Position numbers and translations under genes: made by a program. The notes beneath the pieces are model-generated. The model worked only from the letters and a program-made list of their open reading frames with translations, was not told the DNA's origin and did no database searches. From positions 1 to 45,007 of the forward strand of contig DRKS01000018.1 of NCBI GenBank assembly GCA_011051655.1: a stretch of 45,007 nt of DNA, given 5' to 3'. The stretch is from Sedimenticola sp. Lineage in GTDB: Bacteria; Pseudomonadota; Gammaproteobacteria; Chromatiales; Chromatiaceae. This document shows, in pieces, positions 3,703 through 33,068 of the stretch (the first letter of the stretch is position 1; every line of letters starts with the position of its first letter).

Positions 3703-4168
3703 AATAGGCCGGCACCGGACGCGCTGTGGGGCTCTGAATGTGGCTTTGTCATGGTTAGTAGTATGCTGGAGCGGATTTCAATTGATGGGCGCCACCATTT
3801 CTTCTCCTTCTCAGGGAAAAACGATAAACTATCCCGCGGCAAGCTGACAGGGTATTAAATTGTAGGAGCGGCGCCTCGCCGCGATGATCAGCCCACAGAT
3901 TAAACCACCGTGCGGAGTCATCGCGGCGGGGGCGCCGCTCCTACATTATCTCTTCGCAGCACCAAAGGCAGGCGCTTTGCCTGCATGGACGCAGGTAAGG
4001 CAGATAAATGCTCCTGCATTATCTGCATTCAACACATCCATGTGTCTTGGGCGTGAGCTAGGAGTGGAAGCTTTAGGCGGGCTGCGGGGAATTGAACCCA
4101 ATCAGATTAAAATCAAGTGCTTGATGTCTCAAAACAAAACATTCTCAACGCTACTCAGGAATACCAGA
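3703..4168. other. Intergenic stretch with palindromic repeats, no gene seen
   Basis: The stretch holds the REP-like palindrome at 3861-3945 and a smaller hairpin, GCAGGC-GCTTT-GCCTGC, just after it (around 3969-3985). An open frame from 3884 runs through the palindrome into the next gene but its first part is unlikely to be translated. An alternative start of the next gene at 4124 falls at the end of this stretch. Confidence 0.5.
3861..3945. repeat. REP-like palindromic element beginning TGTAGGAGCGGC
   Basis: The left arm starts TGTAGGAGCGGCGCC and the right arm ends GGCGCCGCTCCTACA; they are inverted complements, and the following CGCCGCGATGA / TCATCGCGGCG also pairs. The loop is about 30 bases. 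Extragenic palindromes of this TGTAGGAGCGGC type are widespread in gammaproteobacterial intergenic regions. Confidence 0.8.
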
Positions 4169-5266: not shown

Positions 5267-6268
5267 TTATTTTCCGGCCTTCCTGGCCGCACGCTCCTTG
5301 GCCCGGGACAGGCGCATCGCCTCCTTGATGGACTTGTTCAACTCCTTGAGGGCCCAGTAGGCCTCCTCATGCTGGCCCCGCTCGATCTGTTGGGCGATCT
5401 TGTCCCGCTCCTCCCGGCTGCGCTGCAACAGGGCGATGGCCTCGGCGCTGCCGCTCGCCTCTATCCTCCCGGCGCTCTTGCCACTGAGCAGACGCTTGTC
5501 GACATACCTGAACGTCTTGTTGACGGACCGCTCCAGCTTCTCCGGGGTCATCCCCTTGGGCAGGGGCCTGCGCTCAGGGGGCGCTTCCACGGGAGGCGCC
5601 TCTTCGGCGGCCACCGTGGTGGGCCGCGCCTTACCAATGCGCCCGCCTCCCTGCTTTCTGGCAAGGGCTATGGCCTTCTGCAGCAGTTCCGTGGAGCCCT
5701 CATAGGCCGCCGCCGCGGATACGGGATCCTCGTCCCCCTCCAGGGACCGGGCCTGGATGCGCCGCTGCTCCGCCTGCCGGTATAGCGCGAAGGCTTCATC
5801 TCCCCCCGCGCCCCTGCCGATACCTCTTTTCCTGGCCCGCTCATAGTAGGCGTCGCTGATGGCGCGCGCACTCTCGAGCCTGTTCCCGGCCTCCCGCGCC
5901 GCACGCTCCTTGGCCCGGGACAGACGCATCGCCTTCTTGAGGGACTTGTTCAACTCCTTGAGGGCCCAGTAGGCCTCCTCATATTGGCCCCGGTCGATCT
6001 GTTCGGCGATCTTGTCCCGCTCCTCCCGGCTGCGCCGCAACAGGGCGACGGCCTCGGCGCTGCCGCTCGCCTCTATCTTCCCGGCGCTCTTGCCACTGAG
6101 CAGCCGCTTGTCGATATAGCGGAGCGTCTTGTTGACGGAACGCTCCAGCTTCTCCGGCGTCATTCCCTTGGGCAGGCCCTTCTGCTCATCGGCACAAAGC
6201 CCGGCGCTCCCCATGAGAAATGCAACGCCCATCATGGGGAGCAGCCACCTTCCGATAATCGCTTTCAT
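5267..6268 (-). CDS. Secreted protein made of two near-identical ~93-residue halves
   Basis: The 333-residue product begins with a signal peptide ending near LMGSAGLCA (residues 1-26). Two copies of a helical module follow, at about 32-124 and 236-328. Each starts LPKGMTPEKLERSVNKT and includes DKRLLSGKSAG, EASGSAEA, SREERDKIA and EEAYWALKELNKS. The linker (about 125-235) is itself helical and Ala/Arg-rich, ending in a Pro/Glu stretch. The duplication is very high at the DNA level too (5286-5564 and 5898-6176), implying recent origin or gene conversion. The product is probably periplasmic. It is convergent with the peptidoglycan-binding gene and divergent from the gene at 6513. No family recognised. 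Confidence 0.75.
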   Translation of the reverse strand: MKAIIGRWLLPMMGVAFLMGSAGLCADEQKGLPKGMTPEKLERSVNKTLRYIDKRLLSGKSAGKIEASGSAEAVALLRRSREERDKIAEQIDRGQYEEAYWALKELNKSLKKAMRLSRAKERAAREAGNRLESARAISDAYYERARKRGIGRGAGGDEAFALYRQAEQRRIQARSLEGDEDPVSAAAAYEGSTELLQKAIALARKQGGGRIGKARPTTVAAEEAPPVEAPPERRPLPKGMTPEKLERSVNKTFRYVDKRLLSGKSAGRIEASGSAEAIALLQRSREERDKIAQQIERGQHEEAYWALKELNKSIKEAMRLSRAKERAARKAGK

Positions 6269-7919: not shown

Positions 7920-8070
7920 TAATTTAGGATACAAAAACATTTAACCGCAGAGGACGCAGAGGTGCGCAGAGAAATGAAATGCTAGCCAGCTTATTGATAA
8001 TAAATAAAAACCTCTGCGAATCTCTGCGTCCTCTGCGGTTAATATTTATCTTTCACCAATCCTAATTTAT
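7919..8070. mobile_element. MITE-like palindromic element
   Basis: The ends are inverted repeats: ATAATTTAGGAT at 7919-7930 and ATCCTAATTTAT at 8059-8070, with one mismatch. Inside, TTAACCGCAGAGGACGCAGAG (7941-7961) is matched by CTCTGCGTCCTCTGCGGTTAA ending at 8042, and further CTCTGCG blocks pair towards the AT-rich centre. The length is about 150 bp and no protein is encoded. The first base overlaps the stop codon of the preceding gene. This type of CTCTGCG palindrome occurs in many bacterial intergenic regions. Confidence 0.65.
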
Positions 8071-30484: not shown

Positions 30485-31969
30485 ATGGAGGCCTGCCTGG
30501 ACCGACGCCGAGCCGGCATCCTTCTGCACATCAGCTCCCTGCCCGGCCACGGCCCGACCGGCGGGCTCGGCTCCGAGGCCAGGCATTTCGTGGACTTTCT
30601 CCACAGCGCCGGTTTCAGCGTATGGCAGACCCTGCCGGTGGGACCCACCCAGCACGACGGCTCCCCCTACCAGTCCACCTCCGTGCATGCCGGAAACCCG
30701 GACCTGATCGACCTGGAGAGCCTGGCCGCAAGGGGCTGGCTTGCAGAGCCCCCCGCGGAGCAGGACGCCTCCCCCGCCCCCGGCCGGGACAAAAAGCGAG
30801 GGAAGACCCTGCGCGCAGCCTGGGAGGGATTCTGCGCCAGCGCCAGTGAAGCCGAACACTCGGCCCTGCACCACTTCAGCCACGAACAGCGCTTCTGGCT
30901 GGACGACTACGCCCTTTTCCAGGCGCTGCACGACGAACACCACACCGGCTGGTGGGACTGGCCCGCGCCCTTGCGCCGCCGGGACCCGGAGGCCCTGGCG
31001 CTGGCCAGGGCGCGACTGGGCAAGAAAATGGATTTTCTCCGCTTCGAGCAATTCCTGTTCTTCAGCCAATGGCTGGAACTGAAACAATACGCCAACCAGC
31101 GGGGCATCAGGCTGTTCGGCGACATGCCCATCTTCGTCGCCCACGACAGCGCCGAAGTCTGGGCCCACCAGGAGCTGTTCACCCTGAACGGCGAAGGCCG
31201 CCTCGAAGTGGTGGCCGGCGTGCCGCCGGACTGCTTCTCCGACCTGGGCCAGCGCTGGGGCAACCCCCTCTACCGCTGGGACCGGCTCCAGGAGACGGAC
31301 TTCTCCTTCTGGATCGACCGGATGGCCACCCAGTTGCACCTGTTCGACCTCATCCGGGTGGACCACTTCCGCGGCTTCGAATCCTACTGGGAGATACCGG
31401 CGGCACAGGAGCACGCCATCAACGGCCGCTGGGTGAAGGCCCCCGGCGACGCCCTGTTCGAACGCCTGCACCAGGTCTACGACCCCCTGCCCCTGGTAGC
31501 GGAAGACCTGGGCATCATCACCCCGGAAGTCAGGGCCCTGCGGCACAAATACCGCCTGCCGGGCATGAAGGTGCTGCAATTCGCCTTTTCCGGCGGCCCG
31601 GAAAACCCCTACCTGCCGTTCAATTTCACGGCCAATTCCGTGGTCTACACGGGCACCCACGACAACGACACCACCCTGGGCTGGTACCTGGGCCTGGACG
31701 ACGCCACCCGGCACTATGTGGATGAGTTTCTGGGGCGCTCCCGCGAGATCATGCCCTGGCCGCTGATACGCTGCGCCCTGGCCTCCCGCGCCCGGCTGGC
31801 GGTCCTGCCCATGCAGGATATCCTGGGCCTGGACAGCCGGCACCGCATGAACCTGCCCGGCACCACCGAAAACAATTGGAGCTGGCGGTTCAACTGGGAC
31901 CAGGTCGAACCGGACCTGGCAGCCCGCCTGCGCAACCGGATCGGGATGTATGGGCGGCTGGTGGGGTAG
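30485..31969 (+). CDS. malQ: 4-alpha-glucanotransferase (amylomaltase) MalQ
   Basis: The 494-residue GH77 enzyme disproportionates maltodextrins in the cytoplasm. It starts RRRAGILLHISSLPGHGPTGGLG and has QTLPVGPTQHDGSPYQS. The catalytic residues are the Asp in IRVDHFRGFESYW, the Glu in LVAEDLGIIT and the Asp in YTGTHDNDTTLGWY; NLPGTTENNWSWR closes the family pattern. Length is typical of the short bacterial type. The stop codon TAG (31967-31969) is also the first three bases of the heptad-repeat array that fills the gap to galU. It is the third gene of the glgC-GH57-malQ operon. Confidence 0.95.
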   Translation: MEACLDRRRAGILLHISSLPGHGPTGGLGSEARHFVDFLHSAGFSVWQTLPVGPTQHDGSPYQSTSVHAGNPDLIDLESLAARGWLAEPPAEQDASPAPGRDKKRGKTLRAAWEGFCASASEAEHSALHHFSHEQRFWLDDYALFQALHDEHHTGWWDWPAPLRRRDPEALALARARLGKKMDFLRFEQFLFFSQWLELKQYANQRGIRLFGDMPIFVAHDSAEVWAHQELFTLNGEGRLEVVAGVPPDCFSDLGQRWGNPLYRWDRLQETDFSFWIDRMATQLHLFDLIRVDHFRGFESYWEIPAAQEHAINGRWVKAPGDALFERLHQVYDPLPLVAEDLGIITPEVRALRHKYRLPGMKVLQFAFSGGPENPYLPFNFTANSVVYTGTHDNDTTLGWYLGLDDATRHYVDEFLGRSREIMPWPLIRCALASRARLAVLPMQDILGLDSRHRMNLPGTTENNWSWRFNWDQVEPDLAARLRNRIGMYGRLVG

Positions 31970-32162
31970 CTTTTGGCGGTTAGCTTTTAGCGGTTAGCTT
32001 TTAGCGGTTAGCTTTTAGCGGTTGGCGGTTGGTTTTTAGTGGTTGACTAAAGTCCCGCGGGTGCTTGCCAATACTAAATTAACACCTAACCGCTAACCGC
32101 TAATCGCTAACTGCTAATCGCTAATCGCTAATCGCTAATCGCTAAAAGCTAACCGCTAACCA
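31967..32162. repeat. Inverted pair of heptanucleotide arrays between malQ and galU
   Basis: The left arm (31967-32043) is eleven 7-base units, mostly alternating TAGCTTT and TAGCGGT. The right arm (32086-32162) is eleven units of CTAAYCG type (CTAACCG, CTAATCG and variants). The arms are inverted complements in type, separated by 42 bases that contain AAGTCCCGCGGG. The left arm begins with the malQ stop codon and the right arm ends 15 bases before the galU ATG, just before its GAGG ribosome site. RNA from this region could fold into an imperfect hairpin of about 70 bp. Confidence 0.85.
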
Positions 32163-32177
32163 AAGAGGAAGACGAGG

Positions 32178-33068
32178 ATGACAAAAAGAGTCAAAAAAGC
32201 GGTTTTTCCCGTGGCGGGGCTGGGCACCCGCTTTTTGCCGGCCACCAAGGCCAGCCCCAAGGAAATGCTGCCCATCGTGGACAAGCCCCTGATCCAGTAC
32301 GCCGTGGAAGAGGCGGTGGCCGCGGGGATCGAGATCATGGTGTTCGTCATCGGGCGCAACAAGCACTCCATTACGGACCATTTCGATACCGCCTATGAAC
32401 TGGAGTCCGAGCTGGAGGCCCGGGGCAAGGACGAGCTGCTCAAGGTCGTGCGCGGCATAGTGCCGCCGCATGTCTCCTGCATCTACATCCGCCAAGCCAT
32501 GCCGCTGGGACTCGGGCACGCCGTACTGTGCGCGCAACCCGTGGTGGGGGACGAACCCTTCGCGGTGGTGCTGGCGGACGACATGATCAACGACGGCGGC
32601 GCCGGCTGCCTGGCCCAGATGGTGGAGGCATTCGCCAATGCCGGCTGCAGCATCCTTGGGACCGAGCAGGTGGCGGCGGAAGAGACGGACCGCTACGGCA
32701 TCGTGGACGCCGAGGGCGAGGGGCCGCTGCTGGAGGTGAAAAGCATTGTGGAAAAGCCGAGACCGGAAGAGGCCCCGTCGAACCTGGCGGTGGTGGGCCG
32801 CTACATCCTCACCTCCGGGATCTTCACCCACTTGTCGCAGACCGGGCGCGGCGCCGGCGGCGAGATCCAGCTCACCGACGCCATTGCGCGGCTGATGGAA
32901 AAGGACCGGGTCCTGGCCTACCGGTTCACCGGCACCCGCTATGACTGCGGCAGCAAGCTCGGCTACCTGATGGCGACGGTGGACTACGCCCTGCAACACC
33001 CCGAACTGGCCGAGGGATTCAGGGAGTGGCTGAAAGAGCGCTTCTTCGGCGCAAACACCCGGGGCTGA
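32178..33068 (+). CDS. galU: UTP-glucose-1-phosphate uridylyltransferase GalU
   Basis: The 296-residue enzyme forms UDP-glucose from UTP and glucose-1-phosphate, used for lipopolysaccharide, capsule and osmolyte synthesis. It opens [41 protein letters not shown], the GalU signature, with [10 protein letters not shown] and the C-terminal [18 protein letters not shown]. Length is normal. The ribosome site GAGG is close to the ATG. It lies downstream of the heptad array, which may separate its expression from the glycogen operon. It is convergent with the TPR lipoprotein gene, 6 bases apart. Confidence 0.96.

What the first reader, a model, noticed from the sequence alone, without database searches (positions are those of the whole stretch)
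31967..32162. Paired inverted arrays of eleven heptanucleotides each
Eleven TAGCTTT/TAGCGGT units face eleven CTAAYCG units across a 42-base spacer. Each arm is exactly 77 bases. The left arm starts with the malQ stop and the right ends beside the galU ribosome site, so the transcript could fold into one long hairpin controlling galU. A 7-base period is out of phase with codons, and resembles the short tandem heptad repeats known in cyanobacteria.
Basis: seen in the sequence. Interest (0 to 1): 0.65.

Follow-up and report, generated by a model that had tools for sequence, protein, structure and literature searches.

The report
Facing arrays of seven-base repeats
Between two sugar genes lie two facing stacks of a seven-base DNA repeat; they are one case of a scattered, poorly understood class of intergenic seven-base repeats in bacteria, and not a switch shown to control the next gene.

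Summary
In detail: two 77-base arms of eleven heptads flank a 42-base spacer, from the malQ stop to 15 bases before galU. It is not a lone artefact. This genome has 12 TTAGCNN loci (six inverted pairs, six single arrays) and many YAACTGR arrays. A paired form with centre TAGCTA occurs in 85 stretches of GTDB genomes from many phyla. None of 113 arrays tested lies inside an ORF. Arms change by whole units, independently, and are not mirror copies; two contig ends carry one locus with exactly one unit of difference. Only one polarity was found: 15 stretches against 0 in viral contigs, 0 reversed here. Four relatives with malQ-galU synteny have a 44-132 nt gap without arrays. A long hairpin is predicted, but nothing shows that it regulates galU.

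Closest precedent: GGGANTN heptads of Xanthomonas (Rehm 2015), with a four-unit mode, convergent inverted pairs and stop-codon proximity. TTAGCNN has no G tract yet shares these features (the four-unit mode in the cross-phylum set, not in this genome), so quadruplexes are a weaker explanation. Best reading: a slippage-grown intergenic repeat pair. Cause of polarity: unknown. New member of a known kind.

The parts
30485..31969 (+). malQ (4-alpha-glucanotransferase); its TAG stop is the first three bases of the left arm
   Evidence: NF011080 E 4.9e-198; TIGR00217 E 6.5e-100
31967..32043 (+). left arm: 11 heptads TRGYNNT (TTAGCNN phase), largely alternating TAGCTTT/TAGCGGT
32044..32085 (.). 42-nt spacer with an 8-bp CCCGCGGG palindrome; folds no better than shuffles; no second copy in the genome found
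32086..32162 (-). right arm: 11 heptads CTAANNG (ten exact TAGCNNT units on the minus strand at 32089-32158)
32163..32177 (+). galU leader, with AGAGGA at 32164-32169, a probable ribosome site, directly after the right arm
   Evidence: read from the sequence
32178..33068 (+). galU (UTP--glucose-1-phosphate uridylyltransferase)
   Evidence: TIGR01099 E 1.9e-111

Best explanation
This is an oriented, inverted pair of intergenic heptanucleotide arrays. Each arm is a tandem of a 5-base core plus 2 variable bases (TTAGC+NN), and the two arms point at each other. Arms lengthen and shorten by whole 7-bp units, independently of each other, most likely by slipped-strand replication. Growth is tolerated only in non-coding space. 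Here it filled the malQ-galU gap from the malQ stop codon to the galU leader, probably in the lineage of this organism. The pair can be transcribed into a long imperfect hairpin, but that is a by-product; any effect on galU is incidental. Shown: the arrays, their genome-wide and cross-phylum recurrence, unit-wise length differences, the independence of the arms, one polarity in every set searched for both, the intergenic position, and the absence in four syntenic relatives. Inferred: slippage as the mutational step, gain here rather than loss in the relatives, transcription of the hairpin, and lack of a dedicated role. Not explained: what first makes a pair, why only one polarity is seen, and why arms of four units are the commonest in the cross-phylum set.
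For: Period 7 dominates tandem arrays with many different cores: 30 of 35 arrays of period 4-12 in 529 kb around the GTDB loci, DNA chosen because it holds a TTAGC pair, and 4 of 5 arrays of period 4-15 in a 319-kb sample of this genome. Unit-wise length change: contig ends C91 and C95 hold the same locus with exactly one 7-bp unit of difference. Homologous loci of related MAGs differ arm by arm: L058 has 3 and 6 units where L109 has 4 and 4; L090 has 3 and 2 where L113 has 4 and 6. Arms evolve apart: NN of facing units agree no more often than in shuffles at shifts 0 to 4 (32 of 392 at shift 0), while neighbouring units in one arm agree in 98 of 352 cases. Intergenic: 0 of 81 arrays in GTDB loci and 0 of 32 in this genome lie inside ORFs. 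The malQ-galU gap is about 44-132 nt without arrays in the 4 of 29 relative loci read that keep malQ beside galU. Six of 12 TTAGCNN loci here are single arms.
Against: Plain slippage does not predict the single polarity: 15 stretches against 0 in viral contigs for TTAGC, 2 against 0 for CGATT, and 0 reversed TTAGC pairs here. Nor does it predict the fall from 28 arms of four units to 4 arms of five outside a set-apart Desulfobacterota group, nor the shortage of purine-pyrimidine NN (6 of 301; 2 of 143). One hybrid pair with its 57-nt spacer is present at two places with unrelated outer flanks, which points to copying as a unit. The excess of period 7 is not seen in a 400-kb sample of the relative G022, where 2 of 7 arrays have period 7.
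Confidence: 0.6

Rival explanations
1. A small repeat element that is copied as a pair, REPIN-like (REPINs recalled): arm-spacer-arm is the unit that spreads, single arms are remnants, and slippage only alters it later.
For: One polarity only. The commonest arm is four units, often with ends AGC...GCT, in unrelated phyla. A hybrid TAGCGGT-57 nt-YAACYGA pair exists twice in this genome, 96.5% identical over the segment, with unrelated outer flanks. In a group of Desulfobacterota MAGs the heptad pair lies inside a dispersed element with terminal inverted repeats.
Against: No second copy of the window spacer in the genome. NN strings differ between copies in one genome outside the set-apart group. 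No shared flanking gene family beyond one cluster of five proteins and ten of two. No transposase has been linked to it; none was searched for.
Confidence: 0.2
2. A cis-acting RNA hairpin that regulates galU or stabilises the malQ message.
For: Fold far below shuffles; the right arm ends next to the galU ribosome site. All five core changes of the window left arm keep G-U pairing in the sense strand.
Against: Absent at the same site in four relatives. Similar pairs occur between many other genes. Elsewhere core changes do not favour G-U pairing in the sense strand: one in L031, one in L040 and six in two single arms do not fit, and the GTDB tandem loci give 5 fitting, 4 not, 12 transversions. 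One search also contained a misphased window right arm, which I discard.
Confidence: 0.1
3. A tandem binding array for a protein that reads TTAGC every 7 bp, for example a ribbon-helix-helix protein of the kind that binds contiguous heptads (omega of pSM19035, recalled).
For: 5-base core with constrained NN and a fixed relative orientation of the arms.
Against: Cores differ between and within genomes. In the phylum sample the reversed core CGATT is no rarer: apart from this genome, 3 of 199 genomes have four-unit TTAGC arrays and 5 of 199 the reversed pattern. Few arrays lie between divergent genes, where a regulator would often bind: 6 divergent, 11 convergent, 44 tandem.
Confidence: 0.06
4. 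Intrinsic transcription terminator between malQ and galU.
For: Long inverted repeat at the 3' end of malQ.
Against: No terminator-like site at the array in the scan; no T run after the right arm. galU starts 15 nt later in the same direction.
Confidence: 0.03

Closest known systems
GGGAATC / (GGGANTN)n heptameric repeats of Xanthomonas (Rehm et al. 2015, PMC4692102; sections 10, 15, 16 and passages read)
   Same: 7-nt unit with fixed and variable positions, commonest length four units, convergent inverted pairs (70 in Xcc, 75 in Xac), 89-93% intergenic and near stop codons, few between divergent genes, no function found
   Different: Core is TTAGC without a G tract, so G-quadruplexes are not expected; seen here in many phyla; four of the six TTAGCNN pairs in this genome have no spacer or almost none, while the window has 42 nt. 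The same paper reports only a few pairs for the Nostoc GGGGA(C/T)T repeats
TAACTGA direct repeats of marine Beggiatoaceae (MacGregor 2015, PMC4679880; abstract, outline and introduction read)
   Same: Intergenic heptads; the same family (YAACTGR) is abundant in this genome
   Different: [quoted passage not shown] here four inverted YAACTGR pairs, all of one polarity
Short tandem arrays in Geobacter metallireducens (PMC2700814; passages read)
   Same: Arrays of four octanucleotides (GTTGCTYN) or five heptanucleotides (MTYCTGA), mostly in pairs on opposite strands, called putative global regulator sites
   Different: Different cores; a further four-heptad family (GGGACCG) is not described as paired in the passages seen; no polarity or growth analysis there
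Heptad stem of the Nostoc trnL intron P6b (PMC4476775; passages read)
   Same: Stem built of degenerate heptads with 5 fixed and 2 variable (NNTGAGT) or similar (TDNGATT) positions; unit-wise length change on one or both sides
   Different: Inside a group I intron, where pairing is part of a functional RNA
Long simple sequence repeats with 7-nt units (Mrazek 2007, known to me only through PMC4679880 and PMC4692102) and cyanobacterial STRR (recalled; named in the listing)
   Same: Excess of 7-nt units, polymerase slippage proposed
   Different: Inversion and polarity are not part of that description as cited

Membership tests
Bacterial intergenic heptanucleotide arrays (long simple sequence repeats) | Head-to-tail units of 7 nt in excess of chance | tested here: met
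Bacterial intergenic heptanucleotide arrays (long simple sequence repeats) | Copy number varies by whole units | tested here: met
   for other loci of the class; not testable for the window locus itself
Convergent inverted heptad pairs as in Xanthomonas | Two arrays on opposite strands, always in one orientation | tested here: met
   reversed pairs were not scanned in the GTDB set
Convergent inverted heptad pairs as in Xanthomonas | Commonest length four units | tested here: inconclusive
   Met for the cross-phylum set (28 of 84 arms outside the set-apart group, with a minimum of 2 forced by the pattern); not met for this window (11) or for most arrays of this genome (4-17)
Convergent inverted heptad pairs as in Xanthomonas | G-quadruplex potential | tested here: not met
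   Unit TTAGCNN has no G tract (by inspection; units)
REP/REPIN elements | GTAG-headed short hairpin and a RAYT transposase (definition recalled) | tested here: inconclusive
   A GTAG occurs at the outer edge of the left arm only (the malQ stop), not of the right arm; a RAYT gene was not searched. REP-like sequences are present elsewhere
MITE | Terminal inverted repeats and target duplication around a dispersed copy | tested here: not met
   No second copy of the window spacer. An element with terminal inverted repeats and an internal heptad pair exists in other organisms
Intrinsic terminator | GC-rich stem followed by a T run | tested here: not met
Riboregulator of galU | Structure changes galU expression | not testable with these tools
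   needs RNA and reporter data

The most novel reading that the evidence does not exclude
Facing heptad arrays are scars of an unrecognised bacterial end-extending activity. A polymerase would add short T/G-rich heptads to the 3' ends of both sides of a break, telomerase-like, after which the two tails anneal at a self-complementary core (TAGCTA) or around filler and are joined. This would account for the fixed polarity, the unrelated arms, the single arms, the centre, and the different cores in different genomes.
Probability: 0.07. Interest if true: 0.92.

Novelty: new member of a known kind. Interest (0 to 1): 0.48.

Why it matters
Heptad arrays have been described piecemeal in several bacterial groups under different explanations (quadruplexes, translational regulators, IHF/HU sites, intron stems). 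TTAGCNN pairs share the four-unit mode in the cross-phylum set, the convergent pairing and the position at gene ends, but have no G tract for quadruplexes. That argues for a cause that does not depend on one sequence. The single polarity is a sharp, checkable constraint on any proposed mechanism, and the variants seen within one assembly and between related MAGs make the mutational step observable in strain collections.

Tried and rejected
Fold-back copying of one arm into the other: rejected, NN do not match at any shift from 0 to 4. Avoidance of pairing at NN: 16 of 218 equal against about 13% in shuffles at first, with 23 and 15 of 2000 shuffles as low, but 32 of 392 with 81 of 1000 shuffles as low after removing related arms; I do not claim it. 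TTAGC as a specially favoured core: rejected for single arrays, since the reversed core is no rarer in the phylum sample (4 of 200 genomes with TTAGC, 6 of 200 with the reversed pattern, this genome in both, where its reversed hits are TTAGCGA units). Stop codons in all frames as the common reason: not general, because GGGAATC and TTGGAAA heptads have none (by inspection). T/G-rich strand always inward: 19 of 21 non-TAGC pairs, but with related copies among them, several near 0.5, and two clear exceptions (L061, L124), so only a tendency. GC-rich or other hairpins in the spacers: clear in L040, L207, L211, L214, L215, not in the window (20 spacers scored). YAACTGA pairs in viral contigs: none in either orientation, so no information. 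Period-7 excess in the relative G022: not seen, 2 of 7 arrays. Literature: six two-unit strings of this family gave two papers, unrelated by title; other searches. A term search of a short-tandem-repeat survey (PMC12699852) found nothing on heptads. Position tables: searches contained a misphased window right arm; one search replaces the position table (its NN count is unaffected), and the own-pair totals are not used. In one search the arrays had been delimited by TRGYNNT, so positions 1, 3 and 7 are fixed by construction.

Rows dropped: L039 was left out where L040 (same locus) was used. Identical pairs were removed before counting (81 to 74, to 68). The set-apart group is nine assemblies chosen by me for shared NN strings; the flank probes hit only six of them. 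In one search, arrays L032:1523-1557 and L034:2597-2680 were not entered, and L225 and L228 gave no cluster of three units. The YAACTGR places come from the first 100 of 120 matches that one search listed. Gene calls come from a crude longest-ORF caller. 80 of the 85 stretches were analysed.

Full report
WHAT IS THERE. The window holds malQ (30485-31969) and galU (32178-33068) in the same direction. Between them are a left arm of eleven heptads (31967-32043), a 42-nt spacer, and a right arm of eleven heptads of opposite strand (32086-32162). In one common phase the unit is TAGCNNT, or TTAGC plus two variable bases. [quoted passage not shown] the left arm has seven exact units and four with A to G or C to T changes, three of these at its inner end. 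The malQ stop is the first TAG. A probable galU ribosome site follows the right arm.

NOT ALONE IN THE GENOME. A three-unit pattern has 109 matches in the 3.12-Mb assembly against 10 for its reverse; a four-unit pattern has 89 against 5. They group into 12 loci: six inverted pairs (C13:30332, this window, C73, C81, C91/C95, C103) and six single arrays (C13:23454, C46, C49, C61, C62, C90). Three pairs have the exact centre TAGCTA and one a near variant, without a spacer. A second family, YAACTGR, has 120 matches against 0 for the control and includes four inverted pairs among the places listed. In a 319-kb sample of other contigs, 4 of 5 tandem arrays of period 4-15 have period 7, and Markov shuffles gave none; in a 400-kb sample of the relative G022 only 2 of 7 do.

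NOT ALONE IN BACTERIA. A 26-base-specific pattern for the spacerless pair hit 85 stretches of GTDB genomes. The record titles name Deltaproteobacteria, Cyanobacteria, Acidobacteria, Anaerolineae, Bacteroidota, Selenomonadaceae, Omnitrophota, Ignavibacteriales, Kiritimatiellales, Methylomirabilota and others. In the 80 loci held (74 different pairs), arms of four units are commonest: 33 of 64 arms in nine Desulfobacterota assemblies that I set apart for shared NN strings, and 28 of 84 elsewhere, against 3 and 4 arms of five units. The outer ends often read AGC...GCT. In six of the nine set-apart assemblies the pair lies beside or inside a dispersed sequence whose ends read, in most of nine copies aligned, TTAGTGYCTGTCCGAAAA and its inverted match. 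The core itself is not special. In 200 genomes of the phylum, 4 have four-unit TTAGC arrays and 6 have the reversed pattern CGATT, this genome in both; in 55 genomes, this one and 54 relatives, the figures are 3 and 2. In 529 kb of DNA around the GTDB loci, 30 of 35 other tandem arrays of period 4-12 have period 7, with many different cores; that DNA was chosen because it holds a TTAGC pair.

PLACE. None of 81 arrays in the GTDB loci lies inside an ORF. Where both neighbours are known, 44 lie between tandem genes, 11 between convergent and 6 between divergent genes. None of 32 arrays tested in this genome lies inside an ORF, and 10 of the 32 reach to within 15 nt of genes on both sides. Both counts use a crude gene caller.

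HOW IT CHANGES. The ends of contigs C91 and C95 show the same locus twice with one 7-bp unit of difference, one substitution in the flank and a REP loop that is flipped, so these are likely strain variants. Homologous loci of related MAGs differ arm by arm: L058 has 3 and 6 units where L109 has 4 and 4, and L090 has 3 and 2 where L113 has 4 and 6, amid 93.5% and 91.7% identity; L070/L097 differ in the NN of units without any length change. Facing arms do not match at their NN at any shift tested, while neighbours within an arm match in 98 of 352 cases. So arms are amplified from within, and one arm is not a copy of the other. The purine-pyrimidine class is rare at NN: 6 of 301 outside the set-apart group and 2 of 143 here. 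About 23 and 14 would be expected from the two positions taken apart (my arithmetic from those calls; related units inflate the contrast). I have no explanation for this. At malQ-galU, four relatives with the same gene order have gaps of about 55, 44, 52 and 132 nt and no array. The other 25 relative loci read showed no malQ beside galU.

POLARITY. All six TTAGCNN pairs and the four YAACTGR pairs here face the same way, TTAGC or TCAGTT running inward. The reversed TTAGC pair was not found in this genome with gaps up to 60 nt. In viral contigs, with gaps up to 30 nt, there are 15 stretches against 0 for TTAGC (two of the 15 share a contig and three are near-identical contigs) and 2 against 0 for CGATT. 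No reversed scan of the GTDB set was possible. The published Xanthomonas pairs are also described as convergent. A hairpin should form about as well either way (reasoning, not computed), so hairpin formation alone is unlikely to be the reason. This is the most informative new constraint.

COPYING. A hybrid pair, TAGCGGT array, 57-nt segment, YAACYGA array, occurs on C46 and C61 with unrelated outer flanks. The window spacer has no second copy. So copying of a pair with its spacer, or exchange between arrays, has happened at least once in this genome, but not detectably for the window pair.

FUNCTION. The transcript would fold strongly, but there is no terminator-like site at the array. Core changes fit sense-strand pairing in the window left arm (5 of 5) but not in the other few usable arms (read with its stated fault). 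The arrangement recurs at unrelated genes. I therefore judge the galU-control idea unlikely (0.1) and slippage-driven growth of a repeat pair in non-coding DNA most likely (0.6), with a REPIN-like copied pair next (0.2).

KNOWN KIND. Rehm et al. 2015 (PMC4692102; sections 10, 15 and 16 read, and passages) describe nearly the same features for GGGANTN in Xanthomonas and found no function. MacGregor 2015 (PMC4679880; abstract and introduction read) describes TAACTGA and reports the 7-nt slippage proposal of Mrazek 2007. The Geobacter metallireducens genome paper (PMC2700814; passages) lists arrays mostly paired on opposite strands. The Nostoc trnL P6b stem (PMC4476775; passages) is built of paired degenerate heptads. 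Six two-unit TTAGCNN strings gave two papers in the held library, unrelated by title. What is added here is the TTAGCNN member, its spread over phyla, the independence of arms, the polarity test, the within-assembly unit variant, and the point that four-unit arms occur where there is no G tract.

Noticed in passing
L039:110-316 and L040:2395-2608 (contig ends C91 and C95): The same array locus appears twice; between the arms lies a pair of inverted REP-like repeats (GTAGGAGCG...) whose loop of about 27 nt is in opposite orientation in the two copies, besides one heptad of difference.
   Followed up: partly
L052, L063, L066, L071, L087, L090, L106, L112: A dispersed element in Desulfobacterota MAGs, with ends TTAGTGYCTGTCCGAAAA and TTTTCGTCCAGCCACTAA in most of nine copies aligned, carries a heptad pair in its middle.
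   Followed up: partly
L032:2573-2756 and L034:2494-2677: A composite of a TAGCGGT array, a 57-nt segment and a YAACYGA array is present at two places of this genome with unrelated outer flanks.
   Followed up: partly
window 5271-5564 and 5883-6176: Direct repeat of 294 bp at 92.5% identity.
   Followed up: no
window 3862-3886: REP-like stretch with GTAGGAGCGGCGCCTCGCCGCGATG; a 25-base match is shared exactly with L039:1071-1095.
   Followed up: no
window 7941-7971 and 8012-8042: Inverted repeat of 31 bp at 93.5% around CCGCAGAGGACGCAGAGG.
   Followed up: no
L211, L214, L215 (viral contigs): TTAGCNN pairs whose spacer holds a GCGCGC hairpin, in two different contigs.
   Followed up: partly
own genome and GTDB loci: The two variable bases of TTAGCNN are rarely purine then pyrimidine; cause unknown.
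   Followed up: partly
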